Source: Solimonas aquatica
Lineage (GTDB): Bacteria > Pseudomonadota > Gammaproteobacteria > Nevskiales > Nevskiaceae
Length of the DNA: 64,000 nt
NCBI RefSeq assembly: GCF_900111015.1
Contig: NZ_FOFS01000011.1
Location: forward strand, 1-64,000
Direction: 5' to 3'
Of this stretch, positions 54,739-59,544 are shown piece by piece. Both the position numbers and the translations under genes were made by a program. Every line of letters starts with the position of its first letter. Within the stretch, counting starts at the first letter, position 1. A model generated the notes under the pieces. The model worked only from the letters and a program-made list of their open reading frames with translations, made no database searches and had not been told where the DNA came from.

Positions 54739-55968
54739 ATGAGTGCTGCTGAACAGACGTTTGTGATCGTGGGCGCCGGCCAGGCCGGCGGCGAAGTCGC
54801 GGTGGAGCTGCGCAAGCAGGGCTATACCGGCCGCGTGCTGCTGATCGGCGAAGAGCCGCATGTGCCCTATCGCCGCCCGCCGCTGTCCAAGGCTTATCTC
54901 GCCGGTACGGTTGGCGAGGAAGGCCTGTACATCACCCCGGCCGCGAGCCTGGCCAAGCACAACATCGAATTCATCGGCGGCACGCGCGTCACCAAGATCG
55001 ACCGCGCCGCCAAGACCGTGAGCCTGTCGGACGGCCGCAGCATTGCCTACGACAAGCTGGCCCTGACCACCGGCGGCCAGGCGCGCATGCTCAACCTGCC
55101 CGGCGCCAACCAGCCCAATGTGCTGGCGGTGCGCAGCATCGAGGACGTGGCCAAGCTCAAGCCCTATGTGGCGGAAGGCCGGCACATCGTCATCATCGGC
55201 GGCGGCTTCATCGGCCTGGAAACCGCGGCGGTGGTGAAGAAGCTGGGCATGAAGGTCACCGTGCTGGAAGGCCTGCCGCGCGTGCTGGCGCGCGTCACCG
55301 TGCCGGAAGTTTCGGCCTTCTTCGAGCGCGTGCATCGCGAAGCCGGCGTGGACATCCGCACCGGTGTGCAGATCGCCGGCTTCGAGGGCGACGAGAAGGT
55401 CAGCCATGTGAAGCTGGGCAATGGCGAGATGCTGCCCGCCGATGTGGTGGTGGTGGGCATCGGCCTGGTGGCCGGCGTGGAGCTGGCCGAGGCCGCGGGC
55501 CTGGCGCTGGACAACGGCATCGTGGTCGATGAGTTCGCGCAGACCTCGGACCCCGACATCGTCGCCGCCGGCGACGTCACCAATCATCCCTCCGAATTCC
55601 TGGGCCGGCGCGTGCGTCTGGAGTCGGTGCAGAACGCCATGGAGCAGGGCCGCATCGCCGCGCGCAGCATGCTGGGCAAGAAAGAGCCCTACCGCACCGT
55701 GCCCTGGTTCTGGTCCGACCAGTACGATCTCAAGCTGCAGATGGTGGGCGTGTCCACCGGCTTCGACCGCGTGATCATCCGGGGTGATCTGGCCCAGGGC
55801 CGCGCCTTCGTCGCGTTTTACCTGAAGGACGGCAAGCTGATTGCCGTGGACACCGTGAACCGTCCGCAGGAATTCATGCTGGCCAAGAAGCTGGTGGCCG
55901 CGCACGCGGTGCTGGATCCCGACAAGCTGGCCGATGACAGCATCCCGCTCAAGGAAATCGCCGCCTGA
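54739..55968 (+). CDS. FAD/NAD-dependent ferredoxin reductase (putidaredoxin-reductase type)
   Basis: A 409-residue flavoprotein with the FAD-binding FVIVGAGQAGGEVAVEL, PYRRPPLSKAYL, the NAD(P)-binding VIIGGGFIGLETAAV and the second FAD motif IVAAGDVTNH. The C-terminal reductase domain includes PWFWSDQYDLKLQMVG. Such enzymes reduce a 2Fe–2S ferredoxin or rubredoxin serving a P450 or monooxygenase. No ferredoxin or P450 gene is adjacent, so the partner is elsewhere. The stop overlaps the next ATG as TGATG. Confidence 0.9.
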   Translation: MSAAEQTFVIVGAGQAGGEVAVELRKQGYTGRVLLIGEEPHVPYRRPPLSKAYLAGTVGEEGLYITPAASLAKHNIEFIGGTRVTKIDRAAKTVSLSDGRSIAYDKLALTTGGQARMLNLPGANQPNVLAVRSIEDVAKLKPYVAEGRHIVIIGGGFIGLETAAVVKKLGMKVTVLEGLPRVLARVTVPEVSAFFERVHREAGVDIRTGVQIAGFEGDEKVSHVKLGNGEMLPADVVVVGIGLVAGVELAEAAGLALDNGIVVDEFAQTSDPDIVAAGDVTNHPSEFLGRRVRLESVQNAMEQGRIAARSMLGKKEPYRTVPWFWSDQYDLKLQMVGVSTGFDRVIIRGDLAQGRAFVAFYLKDGKLIAVDTVNRPQEFMLAKKLVAAHAVLDPDKLADDSIPLKEIAA

Positions 55969-57269
55969 TGCGCCTGCTTGATCTGCAGCGCCGCCTGCCG
56001 GCGGTGCTGCCCCATCCTCTGCGTGCGCTGCTGGGCACGCGCGTGCACGTGCCGGATGACTTGAGCGCGGTCACGCAGATCGACCACGCCGCCGAGTGCG
56101 AACCGCAGCGCGTGGCGATGAGCGACGAAGGCGTGGCGCGGATCTGGAGCGCGGTGGAGAACTTCTACCGCACCGGCCTTCAGCCGGCCATCACCCTGGT
56201 GATGCGTCGCCAGGGCCGCGTGCTGATGAAGCGTTCCATCGGCTGCGTGCGCGGCAATCTGCCGGGCGAGGAGCAGGACTTCGAGCCGCTTACGCCGGAC
56301 ACGCCCATCAGCCTGTTCTCGGCATCCAAGTCGATCTCGGCGCTGCTGGTCCACAAGGCCGCCGAGCTGGGCCTGCTGCAGCTGCACGACCACATCGCCG
56401 ATCACATTCCGGAATTCGCCGCCGCCGGCAAGGCCGCCGTCACCGTGCGCGATCTGCTCGCGCACCGCGCCGGCATTCCCGCCGTGCCGCAGGTGGAGCC
56501 TGCGCCCGAGCTGCTGCGGCAGTGGGACAAGATCATTGCCCTGCTCTGCGCCGAGCGGCCTTTCGACCGGCATTTCGAGCGCCAGGCCTATCACGCGCTG
56601 TCCGCCGGCTTCATCACCGGCGAGCTGCTGCGCCGCGTCACCAAACGCGAGCTGCCCGAGCTGATGCGGGAATGGCTCGCCGAGCCGCTGCAGCTGCGTT
56701 ATCTCACGTATGGCCTGAAGCCCGAGCTGCGCCACCTGGCGCCGCCCAATGTGCAGACCGGCGTGAAGCCTTACTGGCCGGCGACCCGGTACATCGAGCG
56801 CGTGGTGGGCGTGAGCTTCGACGCCGCCATCCATGCGTCCAACGATGACGCCTTCCTCTCTGCCGTGGTGCCGGCCGGCAACATCTACGCCAGCGCCGAC
56901 GATGTGAGCCGCGTGTTCCAGATGCTGCTGGATGGTGGCGAGCTGGACGGCCGGCGCGTGCTCAAGGCCCAGACCGTGCGCGAAGCCCTGCGCCCTGTCG
57001 GTGCGATGCAGCTCGACCGTACCCTGCTGCTGCCGATGCGTTACTCCGCCGGCTTCATGCTGGGCGAAAACCCGTTCGGCCTGTTCGGTCTCAAGAGCCG
57101 CCGCGCCTTCGGGCACCTGGGTTTCGTGAACGTCCTGGCCTGGGCCGACCCCAGCCGCGACATCTCCGTGGCCCTGCTCAACACCGGCAAGTCACTGGAG
57201 CCGGCCGCCTACGTGCGCCTGATCGGCGTGGTGCACGCGATCGGGAAGGCGTGTTCGCGGCTGGATTGA
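55968..57269 (+). CDS. Serine hydrolase of the beta-lactamase/EstB family
   Basis: A 433-residue class C beta-lactamase-like hydrolase. The catalytic SxxK is in SLFSASKSISALLVHKA, the tyrosine region in YHALSAGFITGELL, and GFVNVLAWADPSRDISVALLNTGK forms the final strand. Relatives act as esterases on short-chain or aromatic esters. It lacks a signal peptide, which argues against a cell-wall role. Translation is coupled to the reductase gene upstream, although a shared pathway is not evident. Confidence 0.85.
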   Translation: MRLLDLQRRLPAVLPHPLRALLGTRVHVPDDLSAVTQIDHAAECEPQRVAMSDEGVARIWSAVENFYRTGLQPAITLVMRRQGRVLMKRSIGCVRGNLPGEEQDFEPLTPDTPISLFSASKSISALLVHKAAELGLLQLHDHIADHIPEFAAAGKAAVTVRDLLAHRAGIPAVPQVEPAPELLRQWDKIIALLCAERPFDRHFERQAYHALSAGFITGELLRRVTKRELPELMREWLAEPLQLRYLTYGLKPELRHLAPPNVQTGVKPYWPATRYIERVVGVSFDAAIHASNDDAFLSAVVPAGNIYASADDVSRVFQMLLDGGELDGRRVLKAQTVREALRPVGAMQLDRTLLLPMRYSAGFMLGENPFGLFGLKSRRAFGHLGFVNVLAWADPSRDISVALLNTGKSLEPAAYVRLIGVVHAIGKACSRLD

Positions 57270-57442
57270 GCGGAGCGCTGGCGCGGCGCGCATAACGCTC
57301 ACCACGCGGCGACCGTAGCAACTGCAGCACCCGTAGGGCGGTTAGGCGCGCTAGCGCCGTAACCCGCCAGGGCTTTGCTAATTGTTGCTGCGCGTGTTTC
57401 TCGATCTATTGCCTCTTTCGACCGCCCTTCGGCGGCCGACTC

Positions 57443-57470
57443 ACTTCTCTTTGCTTGTGCAAAGAGAAGT
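57443..57470. repeat. Conserved CTTCTCTTTGC hairpin, left unit
   Basis: ACTTCTCTTTGC and GCAAAGAGAAGT form a perfect 12-base stem with the loop TTGT. It is the best conserved part shared by both units of the element. Confidence 0.85.
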
Positions 57471-57890
57471 AAGCAAGAGAAAGCACACCCCGGCTCTGGC
57501 GCCCGCTACGCGGGTGCCTTCGCTGTGCAACGTGCTCGGGGCCGTTGCAGACACGCCATCCCTGGCGTGGCCGCAACTGAGCCGCCCTTCCTGGGCGGCT
57601 CTCCCCTGCGCTCGCCGCACAGCTCAGCGCCAGAGACGGGGACCCCAAAGTCAAAAGCAACAGCGTAGCGACGCTCATCGCTGCGCTGTTGCTTTGCTGT
57701 TGACCTTCCCCCCTTTGCCTCGCACCGAGCAGCGCAGCGAGCGCAGGGGAGAATCGAACAGGATGTTCGATTCAGTTGCATACAGGCCATGGATGGCCTG
57801 TATGCGACGGCCCCGAGCACGTGAGCAGCGCAGGCTTCCGGCGCCGCGACAGCGGCGACGGATGCGAGGCGTAGGGCGTGCTTTCTCTTG

Positions 57891-57924
57891 GGTACTTCTC
57901 TTTGCACGAGCAAAGAGAAGTACC
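57891..57924. repeat. Conserved CTTCTCTTTGC hairpin, right unit
   Basis: A perfect 15-base stem (GGTACTTCTCTTTGC with its complement) around the loop ACGA. Its extra outer pairs GGT/ACC replace unpaired bases of the left unit. Confidence 0.85.
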
Positions 57925-58095
57925 TCGGGCGCCGGAGGGCGCACGAAACCAAGGCCAGATCAAGAGTTGAACAACGAAGTTACAGCAAGGCCCAGGCGGG
58001 TTGCGGCGCTCACGCGCCTAACCCGCCCTACGAATGACGGACTTTCCTGCACGATGTGAGCGCAGGCCAAGACAGCCGCAGACACTGTCGCGCCG

Positions 58096-59544
58096 CTACC
58101 GGGCCGGCGCAGCTGCGTGTGGACCTACAGCTGTGTTGGGCCACAGCACCGCATGCGGCACATGATCCGGCGACAGTTGCTCGCGCCGGGTGCCGGCGAC
58201 GAAGGCCGGAGCGTGGTCGCCCACCACCACCAGGGCGGTATCGTGGCGCCTGGCCATCATCTCGGCCAGCGATTGCATGAGCAGATGGTGCAGCTTGGCC
58301 AGGCGGCATTCCTGTTCGTCGCCGGCCGTGGTCGGGCTCTGGCTGCAGTCCACGGCGGCGCGCGGGTCCTGGCTTTCATAAATCGGCAGGTGCGCATTGA
58401 GACTCAGCCAGTACACGAACTGCCTGGCGTGCGCGGGATCGTCGAGCTGGCGGCCGATCAGCGCGGGAACGTCGCCATCGCAGACGCCGGGGAAGGTGGC
58501 GCCGCAGCGGGACTCGCGGCCCAGGCGCGTGAGCAGCTCGCGGTCGAACAGGCGCTCGGTGAAGCCCAGCTGCGGATACCAGTGCAGGCGGTTGAACATG
58601 CTGCCGCGATAACCGTGCATCGCCACGCTGTGATAGCCCAGCGCGGCCAGCTGATGGGGCAGGCAGTGATCGAGCTGGATGCGCGGATCGGGCAGGCGGA
58701 TGGAGCTGCTGCGCAGGCCGCAGAGTTCGCGCAGCTCGCCGTTGACGGTGGAGCCCTGGAACAGGGTCTCGCCCAGCTCCAGCCGGAGGTCCGGACGCTG
58801 CGCGGCCAGCTGCGTCAGCGGTGCGGTGATCAGCGCGCGCGCGCGCTCGTCCTTGAACCAGCCCCAGGATTCCACCACCACCAGCACCAGCTTCGGCGGC
58901 AGCTGCTGCTGCGCGAGGCCGGCGACGATGGGCGCGCTGGCGCGTTCCGGCGCCGGGCTCAGCGTCAGCGGCTGCGAGTTGCCCAGCTGGTGGCGCAGCT
59001 CGCGCAGGATGAAGGCGCCCGGCGAGCCGGCCACGTTCACGGAGGTGACGGCGCGGTCCATGCCGGTGAGCAGGTTCGGCGACAGCGCCAGATCCGCGCC
59101 CAGCACCAGCAGTGTCAGCAGCAGTGCGCAGCTGCTTTCGCGGACGCGTGCCGCGCCGGGCGCGCGCAGGCGCAGCATCAGCCCGGCCAGCGCGGTGGAG
59201 CCCAGCAGCACCACCGCGACAATCGGCAGCACGAAGGACGGCGCCAGATTGAACAGCTCCTGCGTGGTTTCCAGCACCTTGCTCAGATCGAACTGGTAGG
59301 TGGGTGCCACCGTCATCGCCAGATCGGCGATCAGGGTCAGGGCCAGCGCCGGCAGGCCCAGCCACCAGGGCAGCCAGGGAATCAGGATGCCCAGGGCCAG
59401 GTAGTCGAGATTGGCCAGGGTGTGGCTCACGCCCAGATAACGGGCGATGAGATTCATCAGCAGATCGGGCAGCAGGCCATAGGCCAGCGCGCTGCGCAGC
59501 AAGACGCGCAGCCAGGACGGCTCGGGTTCGAAATAGCGCCTCAT
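58096..59544 (-). CDS. Membrane-anchored sulfatase/LTA-synthase-like phosphotransferase or hydrolase
   Basis: About four N-terminal membrane segments (to about residue 150) are followed by a periplasmic alkaline-phosphatase-fold domain. Recognisable points are LVLVVVESWGWF, the nucleophile region in FQGSTVNGELRELCGL (Thr or Ser), HGYRGSMFNR and the C-terminal metal site VVVGDHAPAF. This layout is shared by lipoteichoic acid synthases, OpgB and phosphoethanolamine transferases. The exact substrate is unknown. It overlaps the acyltransferase gene upstream by ATGA, suggesting joint modification of an envelope glycan. Confidence 0.78.
   Translation of the reverse strand: MRRYFEPEPSWLRVLLRSALAYGLLPDLLMNLIARYLGVSHTLANLDYLALGILIPWLPWWLGLPALALTLIADLAMTVAPTYQFDLSKVLETTQELFNLAPSFVLPIVAVVLLGSTALAGLMLRLRAPGAARVRESSCALLLTLLVLGADLALSPNLLTGMDRAVTSVNVAGSPGAFILRELRHQLGNSQPLTLSPAPERASAPIVAGLAQQQLPPKLVLVVVESWGWFKDERARALITAPLTQLAAQRPDLRLELGETLFQGSTVNGELRELCGLRSSSIRLPDPRIQLDHCLPHQLAALGYHSVAMHGYRGSMFNRLHWYPQLGFTERLFDRELLTRLGRESRCGATFPGVCDGDVPALIGRQLDDPAHARQFVYWLSLNAHLPIYESQDPRAAVDCSQSPTTAGDEQECRLAKLHHLLMQSLAEMMARRHDTALVVVGDHAPAFVAGTRREQLSPDHVPHAVLWPNTAVGPHAAAPAR

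What the first reader, a model, noticed from the sequence alone, without database searches (positions are those of the whole stretch)
57332..58032. 0.7-kb inverted element with fully compensatory hairpin stems
The two halves keep order, spacing and loops, but stems are rewritten. In one pair AGCCGCCC with loop TTCCT corresponds to GAATCGAAC with loop ATCCT. In another CACGCCA with loop TCCC corresponds to TACAGGCCA with loop TCCA. Such covariation shows selection for structure, so these are probably structured RNAs, structured single-stranded DNA, or ends recognised by hairpin-binding enzymes. It may be an undescribed non-coding system.
Basis: partly seen in the sequence, partly recalled or inferred. 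Interest (0 to 1): 0.78.

Follow-up and report, generated by a model that had tools for sequence, protein, structure and literature searches.

The report
Palindromic repeat carrying paired CsrA-type RNAs
A 0.7-kb palindromic repeat, scattered in dozens of copies between genes, carries two back-to-back copies of a known RNA fold that looks like a docking site for the global regulator CsrA, so a dispersed repeat may act as a sponge for a master regulator.

Summary
Window 57332-58032 is a non-coding palindromic element found at 40 or more places in this genome (27 longer than 500 bp). Each half holds two hairpins whose stems are rewritten by paired changes while the loops mostly keep GGA. Both halves match Rfam RF01731 (TwoAYGGAY) above its gathering score, on opposite strands, facing outward. 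The 54 RF01731 matches reported for the genome lie inside element copies. Across 98 distinct units from other genomes, 24 of 25 base pairs show double-sided changes (567 cells; shuffles 142). The outward pair recurs in other genera, other orders and Pseudomonas. The ends are GTAG-headed REP palindromes, which also occur alone. Copies sit at gene 3' ends: 16 convergent, 10 tandem, 0 divergent of 26.

So the fold is not undescribed: it is in Rfam, and CsrA binding was proposed for it. I did not find in print that it is the cargo of a high-copy palindromic repeat. A P. putida RsmA/E/I pull-down recovered a 'long palindromic region', probably the same kind of thing; I could not check its sequence.

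Best mechanism: transcripts crossing the element expose a two-hairpin CsrA site. Transcription and binding are untested, and most full-length transcripts are predicted to misfold. New variant of a known kind.

The parts
57332..58032 (.). whole REP-bounded palindromic element (one of at least 40 places in this genome)
   Evidence: DNA search of own genome and boundary alignment of copies
57333..57368 (+). left terminal REP-like palindrome, 5'-GTAGGGCGG...
   Evidence: boundary alignment; 71 pattern matches in genome, some outside the element
57995..58031 (-). right terminal REP-like palindrome, inverted
57440..57473 (.). left outer hairpin ACTTCTCTTTGC-TTGT-GCAAAGAGAAGT
   Evidence: inverted repeat I9 and direct repeat D1; counterparts by eye in other genera and Pseudomonas
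57891..57924 (.). right outer hairpin ACTTCTCTTTGC-ACGA-GCAAAGAGAAGT
   Evidence: inverted repeat I8 and direct repeat D1
57538..57605 (-). left TwoAYGGAY unit (RF01731, 48.3 bits, gathering 43): basal stem, hairpin 1 loop AGGAA, hairpin 2 loop AGGGAT
57747..57814 (+). right TwoAYGGAY unit (RF01731, 58.8 bits): basal stem, hairpin 1 loop AGGAT, hairpin 2 loop ATGGAT
57751..57773 (+). right unit hairpin 1, CsrA-like site ACAGGATGT
   Evidence: alignment A1 and pair counts
57776..57807 (+). right unit hairpin 2, CsrA-like site CATGGATG
   Evidence: alignment A1 and pair counts
57606..57746 (.). centre between the two outward units, its middle variable
   Evidence: copy alignment
55968..57269 (+). 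left neighbour: beta-lactamase-family gene (PF00144) pointing into the element
58096..59544 (-). right neighbour: sulfatase-domain gene (PF00884) pointing into the element

Best explanation
The element is a high-copy, REP-bounded palindromic intergenic repeat. Its conserved cargo is a back-to-back pair of TwoAYGGAY RNA units. SHOWN: each unit can fold as a basal stem plus two hairpins joined by AG and CGG, the stems covary, the loops mostly keep GGA, the two units face outward on opposite strands, copies lie at gene 3' ends, and the genome has one CsrA gene. INFERRED: an RNA that contains one unit in sense presents two GGA hairpins to one CsrA dimer. Because the element is an inverted pair, transcription across it from either side yields one sense unit, in a 3' UTR or in antisense to the convergent neighbour. 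Dozens of dispersed copies would then act together as a CsrA decoy (sponge) and/or mark the mRNA 3' ends for CsrA binding. Copies spread as parts of REP-flanked units; what moved them is not known.
For: RF01731 above gathering score in both halves. The 54 RF01731 matches reported for G000 (which scored 150 of 274 candidates) lie, compared by eye, in element copies. Covariation in own units and in units from other genomes. In 58 own units hairpin 2 keeps GGA in 58 and hairpin 1 in 46, while stems vary. G-U pairs on the GGA strand outnumber A-C ones 31 to 11 in A2 and 15 to 5 in A1 (p 0.003 and 0.04; related units and a model that accepts G-U, so indicative only). Outward orientation in 38 of 44 neighbouring unit pairs from other genomes. 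Of 40 own copies, 26 have both neighbours called: 16 convergent, 10 tandem, 0 divergent; the window baseline is 7/22/7 of 36 gaps over 40 bp. CsrA in own genome with L4 and R44 (that these matter is recalled), and in all 24 RF01731-positive of 369 class genomes (compared by eye) against 313 of 369 overall (p 0.017). Prior proposal of CsrA binding for RF01731, made there for Clostridia (PMC4333381, passages). RsmA/E/I pull-down in P. putida KT2440 recovered intergenic sequences next to ISPpu8 and a long palindromic region downstream of PP_3547 (PMC7937890, passages). Other Pseudomonas palindromes carry RF01731 pairs.
Against: No transcript was looked at or seen; no sigma-70-like promoter and no GacA-type box in the window element. 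In equilibrium folding of own copies L021-L045 the unit keeps at least 80% of its local pairs in only 7 of 49 units, one of those from a half copy, because the two halves pair with each other. In the full window copy the left unit keeps 23 of 26 local pairs and the right one 10 of 28; with the outward half alone they form (26 of 26 and 25 of 28). 12 of 58 own units lack GGA in hairpin 1. 31 of 72 loci with a unit in other genomes show no second unit within 1 kb at the threshold used. The KT2440 palindrome itself could not be read, so its identity with this kind of element is inferred.
Confidence: 0.58

Rival explanations
1. The element works mainly as a structured 3'-end device: a bidirectional transcription or mRNA-decay boundary between convergent genes, as proposed for REPs. 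CsrA is not needed and the GGA loops are incidental.
For: 16 of 26 copies between convergent genes, 0 between divergent ones. GTAG REPs lie mostly between convergent or same-direction genes, and P. fluorescens intergenic repeats are biased tail-to-tail (passages of PMC3733652, and PMC2718517). Very stable full-length fold, about -500 kcal/mol for the window copy.
Against: Does not explain why loops keep GGA while stems are rewritten, the three-way junction shared with RF01731, or the preferred outward strand. Terminator-like sites in 57250-58120 are 2, against 0.7 (sd 0.8) expected.
Confidence: 0.2
2. The hairpins are single-stranded DNA signals for a transposase (RAYT/IS200-IS605 kind, or another) that moves the element.
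For: GTAG-headed REP ends in inverted orientation, the arrangement described for RAYT-associated REPs (PMC2817692, passages). REPs also occur alone and as shorter pairs. No target-site duplication of 4 bp or more in 14 testable copies, as expected of such transposition (recalled). The G-U excess fits single-stranded DNA as well as RNA.
Against: No Y1_Tnp match in G000, 98% complete. In the order, Y1_Tnp is found in 24 of 35 RF01731-positive and 39 of 50 negative genomes, p 0.45 (sorted by eye). The covarying hairpins are internal, not terminal. This may be true of the REP ends and still leave the GGA units as RNA.
Confidence: 0.14
3. Mutation, not selection: hairpin arms are kept complementary by template switching or repair within palindromic DNA, and copies are neutral debris.
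For: Palindromes can be corrected by intrastrand templating (recalled). Shortened and partial copies exist (L297, L300).
Against: Correction would erase mismatches, yet the same stem position is unpaired in 31 of 37 own units and 79 of 92 cells elsewhere. GGA loops, junction letters and the basal stem are kept across orders, although the family and model searches favour such units.
Confidence: 0.08

Closest known systems
Rfam RF01731 TwoAYGGAY RNA (PMC2864571, table row and passages seen)
   Same: Both halves score above the gathering threshold; same basal stem, two GGA-loop hairpins and junction letters.
   Different: Listed there as a probable RNA of human gut, gamma-Proteobacteria and Clostridiales; the passages seen do not call it part of a repeat. 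Here two units lie back to back in a 0.7-kb repeat with REP ends. Only the core (model 45-113 of 168) matches in the window; the external stem does not.
CsrA/RsmA-sequestering sRNAs (CsrB, RsmY, RsmZ)
   Same: Paired GGA-loop hairpins of the kind bound by a CsrA dimer; binding was proposed for RF01731 (PMC4333381, passages).
   Different: Not a single regulated sRNA gene: dozens of dispersed copies, no promoter or GacA box found in the window copy.
Rsm-bound intergenic palindromes and ISPpu8 flanks of Pseudomonas putida KT2440 (PMC7937890, passages)
   Same: Long palindromic intergenic region; other Pseudomonas palindromes read here contain RF01731 pairs.
GTAG-class REPs and RAYT-associated REPs (PMC2817692, PMC3733652, passages)
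   Same: GTAG head, imperfect palindrome, inverted pairs, gene-3'-end bias.
   Different: Here the pair encloses about 0.6 kb of conserved structured cargo, and no RAYT is found in the genome.

Membership tests
Rfam RF01731 TwoAYGGAY | score at or above the curated gathering threshold | tested here: met
   58.8 and 48.3 bits against 43
Rfam RF01731 TwoAYGGAY | two adjacent hairpins on a basal stem, supported by covariation | tested here: met
Rfam RF01731 TwoAYGGAY | strict AYGGAY in both loops | tested here: inconclusive
   window loops are AGGAT, ATGGAT, AGGAA, AGGGAT: GGA in all four, strict AYGGAY in one of four
Rfam RF01731 TwoAYGGAY | external stem of the full model (positions outside 45-113); described as not well conserved in PMC4333381, so not taken as defining | tested here: not met
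   both window matches cover model 45-113 of 168 only; 5 of the 54 matches in G000 cover 1-168
CsrB/RsmY/RsmZ-type CsrA-titrating sRNA | GGA in hairpin loops, in pairs | tested here: met
   both hairpins in 46 of 58 own units, hairpin 2 alone in 12 of 58
CsrB/RsmY/RsmZ-type CsrA-titrating sRNA | binds CsrA and relieves its repression | not testable with these tools
   needs gel shift or in vivo pull-down
CsrB/RsmY/RsmZ-type CsrA-titrating sRNA | own regulated promoter (GacA/UvrY box) | tested here: not met
   no sigma-70-like site in 57250-58120 and no TGTAAG-N6-CTTACA match with 3 or fewer mismatches inside the window element (consensus recalled); not filed here
REP (GTAG class) | GTAG head plus imperfect palindrome, many dispersed copies | tested here: met
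   71 matches with up to 2 mismatches, control 3; boundaries
REP mobilised by a RAYT | cognate RAYT (Y1_Tnp, PF01797) in the genome | tested here: not met
   no match in G000, 98.4% complete; may be lost or in the missing part
classical MITE | target-site duplication | tested here: not met
   0 of 14 testable copies with 4 bp or more; mixed-flank control 4%
classical MITE | short, non-coding, terminal inverted repeats, multi-copy | tested here: met

The most novel reading that the evidence does not exclude
TwoAYGGAY is the conserved cargo of a widespread class of palindromic repeats in Gammaproteobacteria that form a dispersed, copy-number-tuned CsrA/Rsm sponge. The inverted-pair design makes a sense unit whichever flanking gene reads through, so gains and losses of repeat copies retune the global Csr/Rsm network.
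Probability: 0.3. Interest if true: 0.85.

Novelty: new variant of a known kind. Interest (0 to 1): 0.58.

Why it matters
It joins three subjects that the passages I read keep apart: an orphan Rfam motif, REP-like palindromic repeats, and Csr/Rsm titration. If right, it gives dozens of 'intergenic repeats' per genome a concrete biochemical role. It would explain a puzzling class of Rsm pull-down targets in P. putida, and it makes a testable prediction: repeat copy number should set free CsrA. Even if sponge activity fails, it shows that these repeats keep their hairpins under constraint and that ORFs called inside them are probably not genes.

Tried and rejected
Coding reading rejected: the six complete ORFs of 50 aa or more inside the element have negative coding scores by a home-made codon score; the 225-aa ORF that runs past the right end was not scored, but it and the 148-aa ORF have no Pfam match. 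Classical MITE with target duplication rejected. RAYT as binder of the GGA hairpins not supported. Clean empty site: the closest homologue of the beta-lactamase gene was found in 10 of 10 genus relatives, and the 1.5 kb held on its far side gave no DNA match to the element or to the sulfatase gene. This shows a location that is not conserved, not a clean empty site. Left and right units differ in stems in nearly all own copies (read by eye); I drew nothing from this, because left and right draw on different allele sets. Other Rfam hits below gathering score (MIR898 and other miRNA models, IRES models) taken as chance on GC-rich hairpins. Presence of CsrB/RsmY/RsmZ genes in G000 was not tested.

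Full report
OBSERVATION. The stretch 57332-58032 is an imperfect palindrome with three main pairs of inverted arms, 78-88% complementary. The stretch looks non-coding: the six complete ORFs of 50 aa or more inside it have negative coding scores, and the two ORFs scanned (225 aa on +, which runs past the right end, and 148 aa on -) have no Pfam family. It lies between a beta-lactamase-family gene and a sulfatase-domain gene that converge on it.

A REPEAT. A search of the window's own genome (4.43 Mb, 31 contigs, 98.4% complete) finds the element again and again; it scored 40 of 133 candidates, so the list is a lower bound. I fetched 39 further places. With the window copy, 27 of 40 are longer than 500 bp; 11 of the 13 shorter pieces abut a contig end, which suggests that the repeat broke the assembly. 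In most copies that reach both ends these are the same: 5'-CGTAGGGCGG ... CCGCCCTACG-3'. This is a GTAG-headed palindrome in inverted orientation, the form given for REPs in PMC2817692 and PMC3733652 (passages). The REP pattern with up to 2 mismatches occurs 71 times, control 3. I looked at 14 of these places outside the main list. Six (L301-L305, L307) match the element only in its REP, one (L306) gave no match, and the other seven hold shortened or partial elements, such as L297 of about 245 bp. No target duplication of 4 bp or more was seen in 14 testable copies. No Y1 transposase was found in this genome.

WHAT THE HALVES ARE. cmscan gives RF01731 TwoAYGGAY in both halves, 58.8 bits on + (57747-57814) and 48.3 bits on - (57538-57605), gathering score 43; these are the only Rfam matches at gathering score in the whole 64-kb window. 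In the own genome 54 RF01731 matches were reported, 51 of them over the cut-off, from 150 of 274 candidates scored; comparing the lists by eye, all 54 fall inside element copies. The unit is a short basal stem (GGG/CCC), hairpin 1, AG, hairpin 2, CGG.

COVARIATION. I aligned 37 distinct own units (58 units found, 38 distinct, one short unit dropped). Of 925 cells 94.4% form standard pairs, with 88 double-sided changes in 10 of 25 pairs; shuffles give 85.3%, 27.4 and 7.8 pairs (29 of 500 shuffles reach 10), and the number of pair types does not exceed shuffles (17 against 17.5). Sliding the partner gives 34-40% paired. A model built from these units was run on 88 loci of other genomes with E up to 0.1: 117 matches in 72 of the 88 loci. 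On 98 distinct rows, 92.9% of 2281 cells are paired and 24 of 25 pairs have double-sided changes (567 cells, against 142 shuffled); all five measures exceed all 500 shuffles. That alignment is fitted to the structure and so leans towards it, but the margin over shuffled and slid controls is large. One stem position (mostly C opposite U) is unpaired in 31 of 37 own units and in 79 of 92 cells elsewhere, which does not fit simple palindrome correction. G-U pairs on the GGA strand outnumber A-C 15 to 5 in A1 and 31 to 11 in A2 (two-sided p 0.04 and 0.003); the units are related and the model accepts G-U, so this is only indicative.

LOOPS. Own units were collected by outer anchors, an anchor between the hairpins and a check that GGA or CGA occurs somewhere in the unit. 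Hairpin 2 keeps GGA in 58 of 58 and hairpin 1 in 46 of 58. In the 98 units from elsewhere, as aligned, both loops have GGA in 84, hairpin 2 only in 11, hairpin 1 only in 2, neither in 1; this set was found with models that favour GGA. The window loops AGGAT, ATGGAT, AGGAA and AGGGAT resemble CsrA/RsmA sites; PMC7937890 quotes the consensus RUACARGGAUGU in hairpin loops.

DISTRIBUTION. RF01731 is found in 7 of 11 genomes of the genus, own genome counted, in 35 of 85 of the order (34 over the cut-off) and in 24 of 369 spread over the class (16 over the cut-off; stricter filters in both). Stems differ widely between genera while junction and loops stay. In other genomes, 44 pairs of units lie closer than 1 kb: 38 face outward, 4 inward (one of these an overlapping double call) and 2 are in tandem; 31 of the 72 loci show a lone unit at this threshold. 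RF01731 is above threshold in 14 of 16 loci given to cmscan (not in L176 and L200), often as outward pairs. Fifteen Pseudomonas genomes chosen for holding the pattern have 2 to at least 98 matches each, 98 being the number of candidates scored.

CONTEXT. Of 40 own copies, 26 have both neighbours called: 16 convergent, 10 tandem, 0 divergent (home-made gene calls). In the window, gaps over 40 bp are 7 convergent, 22 tandem, 7 divergent of 36; on that small baseline 16 or more convergent of 26 has p of about 3e-6 and no divergent p 0.004. Such a bias is known for GTAG REPs and for P. fluorescens intergenic repeats (passages). The window copy is absent from the 1.5 kb held beyond the closest beta-lactamase-gene homologue in 10 of 10 genus relatives.

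CsrA LINK. The genome has one CsrA match, with L4 and R44 present (their importance is recalled). All 24 RF01731-positive class genomes have CsrA (by eye) against 313 of 369 overall, hypergeometric p 0.017, which is weak and confounded. PMC4333381 (2014; passages) proposed that TwoAYGGAY, treated there as clostridial, binds CsrA. In P. putida KT2440, pull-down of RsmA, RsmE and RsmI recovered ISPpu8-flanking intergenic sequences and a 'long palindromic region downstream PP_3547', which the authors tied to IS insertion (PMC7937890, passages). I think this is the same kind of element, but the KT2440 sequence is not in the collections I had.

AGAINST. Folding own copies L021-L045 at equilibrium, the unit keeps at least 80% of its local pairs in only 7 of 49 units (one of the 7 from a half copy), because the halves pair with each other. 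In the window copy the left unit keeps 23 of 26 and the right 10 of 28 local pairs; the outward half alone folds as expected (26 of 26 and 25 of 28). So either RNAs start inside the element, or local hairpins form first during transcription. No sigma-70-like promoter and no GacA-like box in the element were found.

NOVELTY. The fold and its proposed partner are published, and Rfam 15 lists RF01731 among families improved with R-scape (PMC11701678, one passage). Searches for TwoAYGGAY and for CsrA/Rsm with repeats and palindromes listed no paper that I could see to describe TwoAYGGAY as cargo of a palindromic repeat; only listings and the passages cited were seen, not whole papers, and subscription papers are not covered. 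I rate it a new variant of a known kind.

Noticed in passing
L297:318-562 (G000:C16), L300: Shortened REP-to-REP units; in L297 the GGA core is missing and the two ends seem joined at the repeated ACTTCTCTTTGC hairpin, as if the core was lost by recombination between the two hairpins.
   Followed up: partly
L045, L046, L048, L049, L053-L059: Eleven of the 40 element places abut a contig end, so the repeat seems to break this assembly and the true copy number may differ.
   Followed up: no
own units with loop ACGAA, ACGAT, ACCAA or GGCAA (for example L027R, L029R, L023L): Hairpin 1 lacks GGA in 12 of 58 own units although the stem is mostly intact; CGA loops recur in other genera too. Either decay of one site or a second loop type.
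   Followed up: no
L121:1640-1711: Opposite a TwoAYGGAY unit on +, the - strand gives a sub-threshold match to RF01690 Bacillaceae-1 (27.7 bits, gathering 35). PMC4333381 notes that the reverse complement of Bacillaceae-1 carries the CsrA motif, so the two families may be one kind read on opposite strands.
   Followed up: no
window 57606-57746 and the centres of L124, L126, L137, L186, L235: By eye, the centres share a T-rich CTTTTGA-like stretch upstream of a unit in several genera; possible promoter element or recombination site, not recognised by the sigma-70 scan of the window.
   Followed up: partly
L299:480-560 (G000:C28): One element copy is interrupted by a different REP-like palindrome (GTAGCCCGGATGCAGCG...).
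   Followed up: no
order-level genomes G071-G084 (family f6, genus g21): All 14 genomes have Y1_Tnp matches (1 to 8 each) and none has an RF01731 match.
   Followed up: no
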